Source: JAYEMH01 sp034717985 [NCBI: Candidatus Ratteibacteria bacterium] (GTDB taxonomy: Bacteria > CAZDME01 > JAYEMH01). From it: a stretch of 5,877 bases of DNA. Under the pieces are notes generated by a model, which saw only the letters and a list, made by a program, of their open reading frames with translations, ran no database searches and was not told where the DNA came from. Both the position numbers and the translations under genes were made by a program. Below, one piece after another: positions 1,134 to 4,582 of the stretch (positions are counted from its first letter, which is position 1; each line of letters starts with the position of its first letter). The stretch spans positions 4,549 through 10,425 of the forward strand of contig JAYEMH010000033.1 of assembly GCA_034717985.1 (NCBI GenBank). The letters run 5' to 3'.

Positions 1134-2120
1134 TTGACAAAGATTAATGCGGGAATTACCGGTGTGGGTTCGTATTTACCGCCCAAAATTCTTACGAATG
1201 CCGACCTTGAGAAAATGGTTGACACCAGTAATGAATGGATTATTACGCGCACCGGGATTAAAGAGAGAAGAATTGTTGAGGGTGATGTCGCTACCTCTGA
1301 TTTAGCCGTGGAAGCGGCCAAAAAGGCAATCGAAGCGGCCCAGCTTGAAGCCCGGGATATTGAGCTAATTTTAGTGGCCACCGCCACCCCGGATATGCTT
1401 TTCCCTTCAACGGCCTGTATTGTCCAGGATAAACTCAAAGCAGTAAATGCGGCCGCCATGGATGTTGGCGCCGCTTGTTCGGGTTTTATTTACACCTTAT
1501 CTATCGCCCGGGCATATATTACCAGCGGAATGTATAAGAATGTTTTAGTCATTGGGGCTGAGACTCTTTCCAAAATTACTGATTGGCAGGATAGAGGGAC
1601 CTGTGTTCTTTTAGGCGATGGCGCCGGGGCGGCGGTGGTACAGCCGGTTCCGGACGGCAAAGGCATTATTTCCGTGTATCTGGGAGCCGATGGAAGCGCC
1701 GGAGATCTTTTAAAACAGCCGGCCGGAGGTTCTCGTCTGCCGGCCAGCCACGAGACGGTTGACAAACGACTGCATTATATGAAGATGTCAGGGAATGAAT
1801 TATTTAAAATTGCGGTTAAACTCATGGCTGGGGCGGCCCAGAGAGCTTTAGCCCAATGCGGCTTAACCTGCGAGGACGTTGCCTGTCTTATTCCTCATCA
1901 AGCCAATATTCGAATTATCAATGCGGCCGCTAAAAGATTAGCTCTGCCTCAGGAAAAAATCTTCCTGAACATTGAAAAATACGGTAATGTTTCGGCCGCC
2001 TCTACCATTATCGGTCTGGATGATGCCCTTTGCCAGAAGAGGATAAAACCCGGTGATATTGTGGTTCTGGTTGCTTTTGGCGGCGGATTGACCTGGGGAT
2101 CCTGTGTAATGAAATGGTAA
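1134..2120 (+). CDS. fabH: Beta-ketoacyl-ACP synthase III (FabH)
   Basis: FabH starts fatty acid synthesis by condensing an acyl-CoA primer (usually acetyl-CoA, or branched acyl-CoAs in some bacteria) with malonyl-ACP. The 328-residue product has the family's length. The thiolase-fold catalytic triad is complete: Cys115 in GAACSGF (112-118), His255 in PHQAN (254-258) and Asn285 in YGNVSAAS (283-290). Also visible are EWIITRTGI (34-42), whose Trp35 and Arg39 match CoA-contacting residues of the family, DRGT (153-156), and the C-terminal GGGLTWG (316-322). TTG at 1134 is chosen because GAGGA lies 7 nt upstream and the protein then opens with INAGITGVGSYLP, the normal FabH N-terminus. It is separated by 143 bp from plsX and 89 bp from fabD, both gaps carrying repeats. 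Primer preference cannot be read safely from sequence. Confidence 0.96.
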   Translation: MTKINAGITGVGSYLPPKILTNADLEKMVDTSNEWIITRTGIKERRIVEGDVATSDLAVEAAKKAIEAAQLEARDIELILVATATPDMLFPSTACIVQDKLKAVNAAAMDVGAACSGFIYTLSIARAYITSGMYKNVLVIGAETLSKITDWQDRGTCVLLGDGAGAAVVQPVPDGKGIISVYLGADGSAGDLLKQPAGGSRLPASHETVDKRLHYMKMSGNELFKIAVKLMAGAAQRALAQCGLTCEDVACLIPHQANIRIINAAAKRLALPQEKIFLNIEKYGNVSAASTIIGLDDALCQKRIKPGDIVVLVAFGGGLTWGSCVMKW

Positions 2121-2129
2121 GTTATAAAC

Positions 2130-2199
2130 CGTATCCCGTATCGCGTATTTCGTATATCGTATTCCCCGACGGTATACGGACGACGAAATACGGTATACA
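2130..2199. repeat. 70-bp inverted heptad element (5 x CGTATNN, then 5 x reverse)
   Basis: From 2130 to 2164 CGTAT occurs five times at exact 7-bp spacing, with the two filler bases being cc, cg, tt, at and tc. From 2165 to 2199 the register continues in the opposite orientation as NNATACG-like heptads; units 2 and 4 carry exact ATACG, units 1 and 3 carry CGACG, and the last reads ATACA. The two halves fold back: 2144-2153 pairs perfectly over 10 bp with 2183-2192, extending outward to 14 of 16 pairs (2138-2153 with 2183-2198). An inner 5-bp stem joins 2158-2162 to 2174-2178. The element starts 10 bp after the fabH stop and its last base touches the fabD Shine-Dalgarno, so it fills 70 of the 89 bp. 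There is no T-tract after it, so it is not a typical intrinsic terminator. Confidence 0.85.
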
Positions 2200-2203
2200 G
2201 AGG
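2199..2203 (+). promoter_or_regulatory. Ribosome binding site of fabD, abutting the hairpin
   Basis: AGAGG ends 6 nt before the fabD ATG. It begins at the last base of the inverted heptad element, immediately 3' of the predicted stem, so folding of that stem could affect ribosome access. That effect is inference. Confidence 0.7.
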
Positions 2204-2209
2204 TAATAA

Positions 2210-3154
2210 ATGAATAGAATTGCCTTCATATTTCCCGGACAGGGTTCGCAGTATACCGGGATGGGAAAAGATTTTTTTGAAACTTCCGGAAAAATCCGGG
2301 ATTTGTATGCCGAAGCGGAGACGGTTTTAAAAATTAATCTATCCGAAAAAATCTTTAATGGAAATGCTGAAGCTTTAAAAGATACCGCTGTTTCCCAGCC
2401 GGCGATTTTTCTGACCAGTTTTTCCTGCTGCCGGATGCTGGAAGAGGCAGATATTTTTCCGGAGGTGATGGCCGGACACAGTTTAGGAGAATATTCAGCT
2501 TTAACCTGTTCCGAAACTTTTTCATTTTCAGACGGGCTGAAAATAGTTCAGAAACGCAGTTTGTGGATGGCCGAGGCTTCCCGGGAGCATCCGGGAAAAA
2601 TGGCGGCTGTCATTGGTCTTTCCGCCGAAGAGGTAAGGAAAATTTGTCAATCGGTAAAAGGGCGGGGAGTAATTTCCACCGCCAACTTGAATTCTCCCCG
2701 GCAGACGGTTATTTCCGGCGAAAGTTTGGCTGTTGAAGAAGCAATGAAATTAGCCAGGGAAAGAGGGGCCGGACGTGTAGTGGTACTTCGGGTATCCGGA
2801 GCTTTTCATACCGAATTAATGAAAGAAGCAGGCGATAAATTGAAAGGTTTTCTTGATTCCATAGATTTGAAGCCGCCCCGGGTTCCCGTGGTCAGCAATG
2901 TTACGGCTAATTCGGAAAAAGAGCCGTTAAGAATTAAGGAAAATCTGATTAAACAGGTAAGTCATCCGGTTCGTTGGACGGATTCCGTAGAAAATTTGAT
3001 TAATCAGGGTTTTAACGTTTTTATTGAAGTTGGTCCCCGAAGGGTTCTCTCGGGGTTGCTTGCTCAGTTTGGCAATAAAGAAATAATCAGTTTAAATGTC
3101 GAAGACAGGGAATCTTTGGAAAAAACCAAAGAGGCAGTGTCAAAAGTAACATGA
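2210..3154 (+). CDS. fabD: Malonyl-CoA:ACP transacylase (FabD)
   Basis: FabD moves the malonyl group from CoA to holo-ACP, supplying the extender unit used by FabH and FabF. The 314-residue product has the usual length. It opens with FPGQGSQ (8-14, Gln11 in the oxyanion region), and carries the nucleophile Ser91 in GHSLGE (89-94), Arg116 that would bind the malonyl carboxylate, and the catalytic His200 in GAFHT (198-202). Gln249 in KQVSHPVRW (248-256) matches the residue that positions the histidine in known FabD structures. The ATG at 2210 has AGAGG 6 nt upstream and yields the canonical N-terminus. Upstream lies the inverted heptad element; downstream is the largest gap of the window (373 bp). 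No missing residue or frameshift is seen. Confidence 0.97.
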   Translation: MNRIAFIFPGQGSQYTGMGKDFFETSGKIRDLYAEAETVLKINLSEKIFNGNAEALKDTAVSQPAIFLTSFSCCRMLEEADIFPEVMAGHSLGEYSALTCSETFSFSDGLKIVQKRSLWMAEASREHPGKMAAVIGLSAEEVRKICQSVKGRGVISTANLNSPRQTVISGESLAVEEAMKLARERGAGRVVVLRVSGAFHTELMKEAGDKLKGFLDSIDLKPPRVPVVSNVTANSEKEPLRIKENLIKQVSHPVRWTDSVENLINQGFNVFIEVGPRRVLSGLLAQFGNKEIISLNVEDRESLEKTKEAVSKVT

Positions 3155-3169
3155 AAGAAAATAAAAGGA

Positions 3170-3242
3170 ACCACAGAGGACACAGAGCGGAAAACAAAAA
3201 AACAAACCACAGGAAAAGAAATTAACCACAGAGTACACGGAG
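3170..3242 (+). repeat. ACCACAGAG 9-bp repeat family, two pairs
   Basis: Two adjacent 9-bp units, accacagag and gacacagag, lie at 3170-3187. A second pair, accacagag and tacacggag, lies at 3225-3242. A fragment, aaccacagg, is at 3205-3213 between them. The pairs have the same order and period, so they look like diverged copies of one element. An inverted copy occurs at 3489-3499. Confidence 0.7.
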
Positions 3243-3279
3243 GAAAAGAAAACTAAAAAATAGAGGAAAAAGAATTTCT

Positions 3280-3298
3280 GACAGGATTTACAGGATTT
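3280..3298 (+). repeat. ACAGGATTT 9-bp tandem, first copy
   Basis: Two exact 9-bp units acaggattt occupy 3281-3298. The 17-mer at 3280-3296 is repeated without change at 3384-3400, 104 bp downstream, and again as a diverged inverted copy at 3454-3470. Confidence 0.75.
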
Positions 3299-3321
3299 AA
3301 AAAGAATTAAAAAATATGTAG

Positions 3322-3341
3322 GGGACGGGCATGCCCGTCCC
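3322..3341. repeat. Perfect 20-bp GC-rich palindrome
   Basis: The half-site gggacgggca is followed directly by its exact reverse complement, with a possible G-T wobble pair just outside (3321 with 3342). Its GC richness contrasts with the A-rich surroundings. It is flanked by taggg on both sides (3319-3323, partly inside the palindrome, and 3347-3351). No T-tract follows on the + strand, so it is unlikely to be an intrinsic terminator. It resembles small REP-like intergenic palindromes; that class assignment is inference. Confidence 0.8.
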
Positions 3342-3383
3342 TCTAATAGGGAGACAACAAAATAAAAAAAATAAGGAATTCCC

Positions 3384-3470
3384 GACAGGATTTACAGGAT
3401 AAAATTAGACAAAATTGACAAGATTAAAGATATGACGAAATTAAAGATTTAAAATCCTGTTAATCCCGTC
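3384..3470. repeat. ACAGGAT repeat in head-to-head inverted arrangement
   Basis: The + strand copy gacaggatttacaggat (3384-3400) faces an inverted copy at 3454-3470 whose reverse complement is gacgggattaacaggat. The two match at 15 of 17 positions, giving stem arms around a 53-nt interior. That interior keeps traces of the 9-bp unit, such as gacaaaatt (3408-3416), gacaagatt (3417-3425) and gacgaaatt (3434-3442). The design, forward short-period units followed by reversed ones, is the same as that of the 7-bp element at 2130-2199. Confidence 0.7.
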
Positions 3471-3488
3471 AAAAAAAGAAAAGAAGTT

Positions 3489-3499
3489 CTCTGTGGTTA
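3489..3499 (-). repeat. Inverted ACCACAGAG copy upstream of fabG
   Basis: CTCTGTGGTTA is the exact 11-bp reverse complement of 3223-3233. The two sites bound a 277-bp interval (3223-3499). It ends 28 bp before the fabG start. No target-site duplication is visible outside the pair. Confidence 0.6.
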
Positions 3500-3516
3500 G
3501 TTTTTGGCAGTACCAA

Positions 3517-3524
3517 GGGAGGGG
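3517..3524 (+). promoter_or_regulatory. Ribosome binding site of fabG
   Basis: GGGAGGGG ends 3 nt before ATG at 3528, with its GGAGG-like core about 4-5 nt away. It fixes the start at this ATG rather than at the upstream in-frame TTG (3504), which lacks a comparable site and would place this purine tract inside the coding sequence. Confidence 0.75.
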
Positions 3525-3527
3525 ATA

Positions 3528-4547: not shown

Positions 4548-4582
4548 AATAGTCCATAGTCGACAGTCCACGGTCGATAGAT
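4548..4582. repeat. Five tandem 7-bp units, consensus NAYRGTC
   Basis: Consecutive heptads begin at 4548: aatagtc, catagtc, then gacagtc, cacggtc and a decayed fifth unit, gatagat. The first four fit N-A-Y-R-G-T-C. This is the same pattern as 1015-1049 except that position 6 is T in the first four units here and A in every unit there. It begins 15 bp after the acpP stop, in the 142-bp acpP-fabF gap. The remainder of the gap is A/T-rich and holds the small tandem at 4621-4634. Confidence 0.75.

What the first reader, a model, noticed from the sequence alone, without database searches (positions are those of the whole stretch)
2130..2199. 70-bp element with strict 7-bp phasing that reverses orientation at its midpoint
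CGTAT recurs five times at exactly 7-bp steps, then the same register continues for five heptads in reverse orientation, giving a foldback structure that fills nearly all of the fabH-fabD gap and ends on the fabD Shine-Dalgarno. Seen directly: the spacing, the switch of strand at 2164/2165, and a 10-bp perfect arm inside a 14/16 stem. Phased units with free filler bases are not what simple slippage makes; they suggest selection on a spaced core, copying of a unit, or a transcript structure. Position next to the Shine-Dalgarno makes translational tuning of FabD possible, which is inference.
Basis: partly seen in the sequence, partly recalled or inferred. Interest (0 to 1): 0.65.

Follow-up and report, generated by a model that had tools for sequence, protein, structure and literature searches.

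The report
Gene-less hairpin repeat between fab genes
A strictly 7-base-stepped, folded-back DNA repeat sits between two fatty-acid genes, and it looks like the gene-less form of a little-studied kind of selfish element that elsewhere carries a small ring-forming protein gene between the same sort of repeats.

Summary
CGTAT recurs five times at exact 7-bp steps (2130-2164); the mirror arm (2165-2199) keeps the register, though only two of its five cores are exact ATACG. It is neither chance nor unique: two other gaps of the window hold 7-bp arrays, and in Omnitrophota and the nearest kin held, 7-bp (often also 8-bp) arrays with many different cores dominate the tandem repeats. fabH and fabD overlap in 62 of 94 junctions examined, 54 at exactly -7. 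Of 17 other distinct junctions with a gap of 28 bp or more, 15 hold foldbacks or phased arrays. In two genomes this same junction holds inverted arrays around a PF05635 gene (23S rRNA intervening-sequence protein, S23p). The two flanks of PF05635 genes match as inverted copies in 23 of 29 loci, against 25 of 812 locus swaps and 17 of 673 ordinary ORFs. Best reading: a gene-less derivative of an S23p-type element inserted at the fabH/fabD junction. Mobility, S23p-heptad contact and an effect on FabD are inferred.

The parts
1134..2120 (+). fabH (beta-ketoacyl-ACP synthase III), ends AAATGGTAA
   Evidence: Pfam PF08541/PF08545; best relatives 61-65% identical, among them Omnitrophota
2130..2164 (+). 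forward arm: five heptads CGTATCC CGTATCG CGTATTT CGTATAT CGTATTC
2165..2199 (-). inverted arm in the same 7-bp register; cores CGACG, ATACG, CGACG, ATACG, ATACA at 2167, 2174, 2181, 2188, 2195
   Evidence: RNA fold; second pairing register
2116..2120 (+). left copy of GGTAA, possible 5-bp target-site duplication (weak: short, could be chance)
2202..2206 (+). right copy of GGTAA, overlaps the Shine-Dalgarno
2199..2203 (+). fabD Shine-Dalgarno AGAGG, at the edge of the element
   Evidence: sequence
2210..3154 (+). fabD (malonyl-CoA:ACP transacylase)
   Evidence: Pfam PF00698
1003..1054 (+). second heptad array, plsX-fabH gap, core GACNATA; no inverted partner noticed by eye
4548..4577 (-). third heptad array, acpP-fabF gap, GACNATA-like core on the other strand
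3163..3504 (.). nested foldbacks in the fabD-fabG gap: CCACAGAG arms 3163-3181/3486-3504 around ACAGGATTT (9-bp step) arms 3275-3302/3448-3475
   Evidence: inverted repeats I1, I5, I6; tandem rows

Best explanation
The 70-bp segment is a gene-less, MITE-like foldback belonging to a class of dispersed elements whose full form is [phased 7- or 8-bp array] - gene for the four-helix-bundle 23S-rRNA-intervening-sequence protein (PF05635/TIGR02436, S23p) - [the same array inverted]. It sits at the fabH/fabD junction, which in most related genomes is a direct overlap or a gap of a few bases. Once there it is transcribed with the fab operon as an imperfect hairpin, breaks the ancestral stop-start coupling, and leaves fabD with its own Shine-Dalgarno. 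Shown here: the anatomy, the recurrence of the class, the S23p association, and full and gene-less forms at this same junction in different genomes. Inferred: movement, the direction full form to gene-less form, any role of S23p in recognising the heptads, RNase III processing and any effect on FabD.
For: Junction: of 94 resolved fabH/fabD junctions (108 tried; 2 duplicates; window included), 62 overlap, 54 of them at exactly -7; 15 of 17 other distinct junctions with a gap >=28 bp show fold z <= -2.5 or lag-7/8 z >= 4, 8 of them on phasing (thresholds set after seeing the data). G309 (L114), from the small group nearest by FabD, has the same plan with another core: four AAGCTNC heptads, a short loop, then inverted heptads. 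In G241 (L302) and G135 (L322) this junction holds an S23p gene between inverted heptad arrays (18/21 and 19/21 inverted match), with FabH before and FabD after. Class: lag-7 arrays run at 73-298 per Mb in five genomes and 0 in 168, 100 and 83 kb of three others; lags 7 and (in G001, G308) 8 with their multiples stand out, with a smaller peak at 10 in G001. In four of these genomes 26 array pairs with an inverse partner downstream within 800 bp were found from 209 arrays (reversed control 2 of 209), 24 of them within 251 bp and none enclosing an S23p gene, so gene-less foldbacks prevail. S23p link: best flank period is 7 or 8 in 27 of 29 upstream and 25 of 29 downstream flanks; the two flanks match as inverted copies (>=17/21) in 23 of 29, against 25 of 812 swapped, 2 of 29 direct and 17 of 673 ordinary ORFs of five of the genomes (8 of 207 for ORFs of 300-600 nt). 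CGTAT-core S23p elements exist in several genomes (L317, L321, L337, L323, L324); in held sequence CGTAT-then-ATACG neighbours outnumber the reverse order 6 to 1 (same-direction neighbours 7). PF05635 occurs in 41 of 48 CGTAT-array genomes against 132 of 237 others (p = 8e-5), and in 20 of 20 with four or more matches. Independent precedent: the intervening sequence of Coxiella 23S rRNA has inverted ends and tandem heptamers (GACAGAT) just before its S23p start codon (PMC4990558, passages and one section read).
Against: No S23p gene lies between the arms and the window's genome is not held, so a partner in trans cannot be shown. No empty/filled pair of close relatives was found; the nearest FabD is 48% identical. 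The target-site duplication is only 5 bp. Seven of 48 CGTAT-array genomes lack a detectable PF05635 gene (each has three matches or fewer) and 132 of 237 genomes without CGTAT arrays have one. G025 has one CGTAT match and no PF05635; G023 has a PF05635 gene but no lag-7 array in 83 kb. In 50 genomes of other phyla, arrays in the fabH locus did not track PF05635 (2 of 13 with, 4 of 37 without). Only 10 of 19 S23p loci of a wider set had inverted flanks at the threshold, 4 of the 10 from one Akkermansia genome whose flanks are mostly not phased. G246 has PF05635 beside fabD but no heptad flanks; no FabH was found in the short stretch upstream before the contig ends. Several long fabH-fabD gaps hold unphased palindromes (L284, L265, L002, L157, L152), so foldbacks of other kinds also land here. 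Most dispersed arrays lack a clear inverted partner within 150 bp (47 of 54 in G001; 38 of 54 if pairing within the array is allowed). S23p elements could also be drawn to existing arrays instead of making them.
Confidence: 0.6

Rival explanations
1. Ordinary heptanucleotide repeat expansion. Polymerase slippage favours 7-nt units, hairpin-templated strand switching makes the inverted arm, and S23p has nothing to do with it.
For: Heptanucleotides were the most abundant long simple repeats in most genomes of an earlier survey, attributed to polymerase slippage (as told in PMC4679880, section 3 read, and PMC4692102, passages read). The period is constant while cores vary.
Against: Does not predict matched inverted arrays flanking one protein family (23 of 29 against 17 of 673 ORFs), nor the same core recurring at several loci of a genome (consensus lists), nor arrays filling an otherwise overlapping gene junction.
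Confidence: 0.22
2. A cis-acting regulatory RNA of the fab operon that tunes FabD translation or operon mRNA stability.
For: The hairpin is better than 199 of 200 shuffles and its base touches the Shine-Dalgarno.
Against: No Rfam match of weight (best E = 1.3, a microRNA family far below its cut-off); most relatives examined have no gap here, and those that do carry mostly unrelated sequences; the same class sits beside and inside unrelated genes. A host use after insertion remains possible.
Confidence: 0.1
3. Paired binding sites for a DNA-binding global regulator, as proposed for heptad and octad repeats paired on opposite strands in Geobacter metallireducens.
For: That genome's class 1-3 sites have similar anatomy (PMC2700814, passages read).
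Against: Cores differ between sites of one genome (39 consensus units in 54 arrays of G001, some of them variants of each other), which one sequence-specific protein would not read; arrays also lie in coding sequence.
Confidence: 0.06
4. Intrinsic transcription terminator or promoter between fabH and fabD.
For: A hairpin exists.
Against: No T-run follows; the scan of 1900-2400 finds no terminator-like or promoter-like site in the gap.
Confidence: 0.02

Closest known systems
23S rRNA intervening sequences (IVS) with S23p ORF, e.g. Coxiella (PMC4990558)
   Same: Inverted ends that form a long stem; heptameric repeats next to the S23p gene; called a selfish element; S23p of Xanthomonas (2gsc) is a ring of five
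   Different: Sits in a protein operon, not in rRNA; the window copy has no S23p gene; here both arms are arrays of degenerate heptads with element-specific cores
Geobacter metallireducens paired 7- and 8-mer tandem sites, classes 1-3, and 49 GGGACCG elements (PMC2700814)
   Same: Tandem 7- or 8-mers in pairs on opposite strands with variable spacing (classes 1-2 by the file descriptions); heptad elements between and within genes
   Different: Described there as regulator binding sites or regulatory RNA, each class with one core; no link to S23p in the passages read
TAACTGA heptamer direct repeats of Beggiatoaceae (PMC4679880) and heptanucleotide long simple repeats
   Same: 7-nt unit, often just upstream of start codons
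   Different: Uniform unit; 169 direct sets and one indirect repeat in the genome described, so no foldback plan
MITEs and REP/BIME-type intergenic palindromes (recalled)
   Same: Short, gene-less, inverted, dispersed in gene gaps including within operons
   Different: Defined by a conserved sequence; here only step and inversion are conserved, and the putative partner is not a transposase

Membership tests
23S rRNA intervening sequence (IVS/S23p element) | inserted in a 23S rRNA gene | tested here: not met
   lies between fabH and fabD
23S rRNA intervening sequence (IVS/S23p element) | complementary ends forming a stem | tested here: met
   RNA fold -32.2, z -3.06; arms 23 of 35 mirror matches
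23S rRNA intervening sequence (IVS/S23p element) | S23p ORF between the ends (some IVS lack it, recalled) | tested here: not met
   arms abut, leaving no room for a gene; none of the six window genes is PF05635; the other ORFs were not scanned
23S rRNA intervening sequence (IVS/S23p element) | excision of the transcript by RNase III | not testable with these tools
   needs RNA work
S23p-flanked heptad elements (class described here) | two inverted arrays of 7- or 8-bp units with matching core | tested here: met
   compare 23 of 29 S23p loci
S23p-flanked heptad elements (class described here) | S23p gene in the element or elsewhere in the genome | not testable with these tools
   own genome not held; no gene in the window copy
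MITE | target-site duplication | tested here: inconclusive
   GGTAA at 2116-2120 and 2202-2206, too short to exclude chance
MITE | transposase partner sharing the terminal repeats | not tested
   the partner proposed is S23p, which is not a transposase; transposases were not searched
heptanucleotide simple sequence repeat | identical tandem units in one orientation | tested here: not met
   two variable phases and reversal at 2164/2165
intrinsic terminator | G+C-rich hairpin followed by a T-run | tested here: not met

The most novel reading that the evidence does not exclude
Phased heptad arrays are the working ends of a widespread, so far unrecognised class of mobile element built around the pentameric S23p ring. 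S23p binds the repeated units as RNA or single-stranded DNA, roughly one 7-nt unit per subunit, so the step is conserved while the sequence drifts. Gene-less foldbacks like this one are its non-autonomous copies, and much of the unexplained excess of heptanucleotide repeats in bacteria would come from it.
Probability: 0.25. Interest if true: 0.88.

Novelty: new variant of a known kind. Interest (0 to 1): 0.7.

Why it matters
S23p has a solved structure and, by the Coxiella paper (PMC4990558), no known function, and the excess of 7-bp repeats in bacteria has been put down to polymerase slippage. Finding that S23p genes outside rRNA are often framed by matched, inverted 7- or 8-bp arrays, and that such arrays occur without the gene at 73-298 per megabase in the five array-bearing genomes sampled (nearly all of them gene-less, since one search found one S23p gene in the stretches of four of these genomes), ties the two puzzles together and makes both testable. 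It also shows how one operon junction can be rewritten repeatedly by short foldbacks.

Tried and rejected
Plasmid similarity search: no match. Rfam: two matches at E 1.3 and 6.3, far below cut-off. The idea of one conserved protein-binding core was dropped: cores differ and phase conservation is only mild. The idea that arms hold exactly five units, matching a five-subunit ring, is not established: the dispersed-array mode of five (72 of 128) sits at the detection floor, and arms at S23p genes have medians of 3.7 and 4.9 units. The control built into (pattern read backwards) is not clean: by my count of its rows 17 of 285 genomes match it, because GCATANN heptads are another core of the same class (15 of these 17 have PF05635). 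A cross-phylum test of arrays against PF05635 in small loci showed no relation. My notebook entry listed G246 as a third fabH-S23p-fabD junction; searches do not support that and it is withdrawn. In one search the part on shared heptamers, from G308 on, and its control failed from a script error (a variable was overwritten) and are not used; the consensus lists printed before it are. One search ended with an error after printing its counts; array sequences were then printed (40 of the 54 for G001). The random-slot inverted-match histogram contains 48 perfect matches, probably from runs of N, and was replaced by the swap and ORF controls. In one search shuffles were mononucleotide. G061 and G254 were picked for density measurements because they were rich in CGTAT matches; G001 and G308 were not picked on CGTAT; the regions were the first 20 kb or less of numbered contigs (for G061 only the 14 regions not chosen for arrays were counted). 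Of 82 PF05635 matches, the 30 with loci returned by the tool were examined, one of them with its upstream flank cut off.

Full report
What is there. The window is a fatty-acid cluster, plsX-fabH-fabD-fabG-acpP-fabF. In the 89-bp fabH-fabD gap CGTAT starts at 2130, 2137, 2144, 2151 and 2158. Mirrored about 2164/2165, the five corresponding positions read CGACG, ATACG, CGACG, ATACG, ATACA, so the register is kept but only two reverse cores are exact; the 35-nt arms agree at 23 of 35 mirror positions. The RNA folds at -32.2 kcal/mol, z = -3.06; as DNA it is not unusual. Two other gaps hold 7-bp arrays with a GACNATA-like core in opposite orientations (1003-1054 and 4548-4577), and the fabD-fabG gap holds nested foldbacks, one with a 9-bp step.

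Where it comes from. The own genome is not held. FabH relatives are 61-65% identical at best and include Omnitrophota and some Clostridia MAGs. FabD is 48% identical in a small group represented by G001 (5 of 6 genomes match) and at most 47% among the listed rows, 45% for the best-scoring one, in 285 Omnitrophota (266 match). No close relative was found, so species-level comparison was impossible.

It is one of a class. CGTATNNCGTATNNCGTAT matches 48 of 285 Omnitrophota genomes, with up to 50 overlapping matches in one, and 1 of 25 genomes of the nearest FabH loci. A lag scan (28-nt span, 75% identity) finds lag-7 arrays as follows: G001 54 in 271 kb, G308 19 in 64 kb, G061 12 in 165 kb, G254 29 in 211 kb, Elusimicrobia G015 14 in 189 kb, and none in Clostridia G005 (168 kb), Spirochaete G025 (100 kb) or G023 (83 kb). 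Lag 8 gives 47, 9, 4, 2 and 0 in the first five; apart from 7, 8 and their multiples, other lags give 0-10, the 10 being lag 10 in G001. The cores are many: 39 different consensus units in 54 arrays of G001, some of them variants of each other. A partner array in inverse orientation within 150 bp is present in 7 of 54, 4 of 19, 4 of 12, 10 of 29 and 1 of 14 arrays of these genomes, against 1, 0, 0, 0 and 0 for the reversed and 4, 2, 0, 3 and 0 for the complemented control. A second scan of G001, G308, G061 and G254 sequence (lags 7 and 8) gave 26 pairs with a downstream inverse partner within 800 bp from 209 arrays, reversed control 2 of 209; 24 lie within 251 bp and none encloses an S23p gene.

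The junction. I compared fabH/fabD junctions in 107 loci plus the window; 94 were resolved, 14 not. 62 overlap (54 at exactly -7, where the fabD ATG lies inside the last codons of fabH), 11 have gaps of 1-12 bp, 2 of 13-27 and 19 of 28 or more (L001/L112 and L004/L113 are the same loci, so 18 distinct long gaps including the window). Of the 17 others, 15 show fold z <= -2.5 or lag-7/8 z >= 4; L275 and L003 do not. Eight pass on phasing (L302, L001, L114, L171, L292, L282, L008, L153), with mostly different cores; seven pass on folding only, among them palindromes without 7-bp phasing. G309 (L114) has the same plan as the window: four AAGCTNC heptads, a short loop, then inverted heptads. The simplest history is that the gap exists because the element went in. 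GGTAA on both sides (2116-2120, 2202-2206) would fit a 5-bp target duplication but is weak.

The S23p connection. In L302 the long gap holds a left heptad array, a small ORF and an inverted right array (18/21 inverted, 11/21 direct). The ORF is PF05635, 23S_rRNA_IVP (2.6e-28), TIGR02436 four helix bundle protein; its only solved relative found by sequence is 2gsc, deposited with five chains. PF05635 occurs in 18 of 20 chosen genomes, 2-10 matches each; the two without are G005 and G025, whose sampled stretches hold no lag-7 array, and none of 14 control genomes has it. Of 30 such loci examined (of 82 matches), 22 have a lag-7/8 array within 220 bp and 15 on both sides, against 9% and 0.3% of 600 random slots. 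In the 29 with both flanks, the two flanks match as inverted copies (>=17/21) in 23; swapping flanks between loci gives 25 of 812, direct orientation 2 of 29; ordinary ORFs of five genomes give 17 of 673, and 8 of 207 for those of 300-600 nt. The best period is 7 or 8 in 27 of 29 upstream and 25 of 29 downstream flanks. L322 (G135) shows a second fabH - array - S23p gene - inverted array - fabD junction, with FabH and FabD confirmed by tblastn. In a wider set of 19 loci from 9 genomes 10 pass (swaps 6 of 342): phased ones in Acidobacteria (L356, L364), Nitrospirae (L357, L359), Elusimicrobia (L362) and G023 (L365), and four of six Akkermansia loci, whose flanks are mostly unphased inverted repeats.

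Genome-level association. 41 of 48 Omnitrophota genomes with CGTAT arrays have PF05635, against 132 of 237 without (Fisher p = 8e-5); all 20 with four or more matches have it (cross-tabulated, recounted; test). Absences are soft, since these are largely draft genomes. Against it: G025 has one CGTAT match without PF05635, G023 has PF05635 but no lag-7 array in 83 kb, and in 50 genomes of other phyla the small fabH loci show no association.

Precedent in print. The Coxiella 23S rRNA intervening sequence is described as a selfish element with complementary ends, an S23p ORF of the family whose Xanthomonas member is a ring of five, and tandem heptamers GACAGAT just before the ORF whose number differs between strains (PMC4990558, passages and section 16). 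Geobacter metallireducens has heptad and octad repeats paired on opposite strands, read there as regulator sites (PMC2700814, passages). Heptamer excess in bacteria is attributed to polymerase slippage (PMC4679880 section 3, PMC4692102 passages). A search for two or more of S23p, heptameric repeats, four helix bundle, rRNA intervening sequence, PF05635 and TIGR02436 found only the Coxiella paper; some searches gave, in the listed titles and abstract starts (30 of 348 papers listed), nothing on dispersed S23p elements with phased ends, and (Omnitrophota, tandem repeats, intergenic) found no paper. PMC11270868 (insertions in CPR rRNA genes) was seen only in the listing. Most subscription papers are not in that library.

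How it probably works. Shown: phased inverted arms, recurrence, matched arms around S23p genes, and both forms at one junction. Inferred: S23p or its transcript helps the element persist or move; the arms are kept alike within an element by unit copying and hairpin-templated repair, which keeps the step while the core drifts; loss of the gene leaves foldbacks such as this one, which may still move in trans. After insertion the hairpin lies in the fab transcript and could be cut by RNase III or mask the fabD start, of which only a three-pair contact with the Shine-Dalgarno is predicted.

Limits. The window copy itself carries no S23p gene, so its place in the class rests on anatomy, junction and shared core.

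Noticed in passing
L101 and L107, about 1480-1530: Heptad array inside an open frame reading ...LACGTG(A/S)VASALLYAIRYTLSA..., by eye dapF, at the same place in two genomes and in frame.
   Followed up: partly
L098 1501-1534, 1960-1993, 2598-2631; also downstream flanks of L321 and L337: CGTAT-type arrays lie at the 5' ends of prepilin-like genes; the first two of L098 are open into the prepilin frame (for example KKRYTIYDIRHTKQG before LTLIEL; the third was not translated), and an S23p gene lies just upstream of the first.
   Followed up: partly
window 3155-3527: fabD-fabG gap packed with nested foldbacks: CCACAGAG arms around ACAGGATTT arms around a GGGACGGGCATGCCCGTCCC hairpin.
   Followed up: no
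L002, L284, L265 fabH-fabD gaps: A GGGACTGTCCC-type palindromic repeat, not phased by 7, lies in the same junction in three Omnitrophota genomes.
   Followed up: no
L347-L352 (G333, Akkermansia MAG, 15 PF05635 matches): S23p-family genes, four of six examined with long, nearly exact but mostly unphased inverted flanks, a possible second kind of end.
   Followed up: no
G001 and other loci: An 8-bp-stepped class is nearly as common as the 7-bp class in G001 (47 against 54 arrays) and rare in G254 (2 against 29).
   Followed up: no
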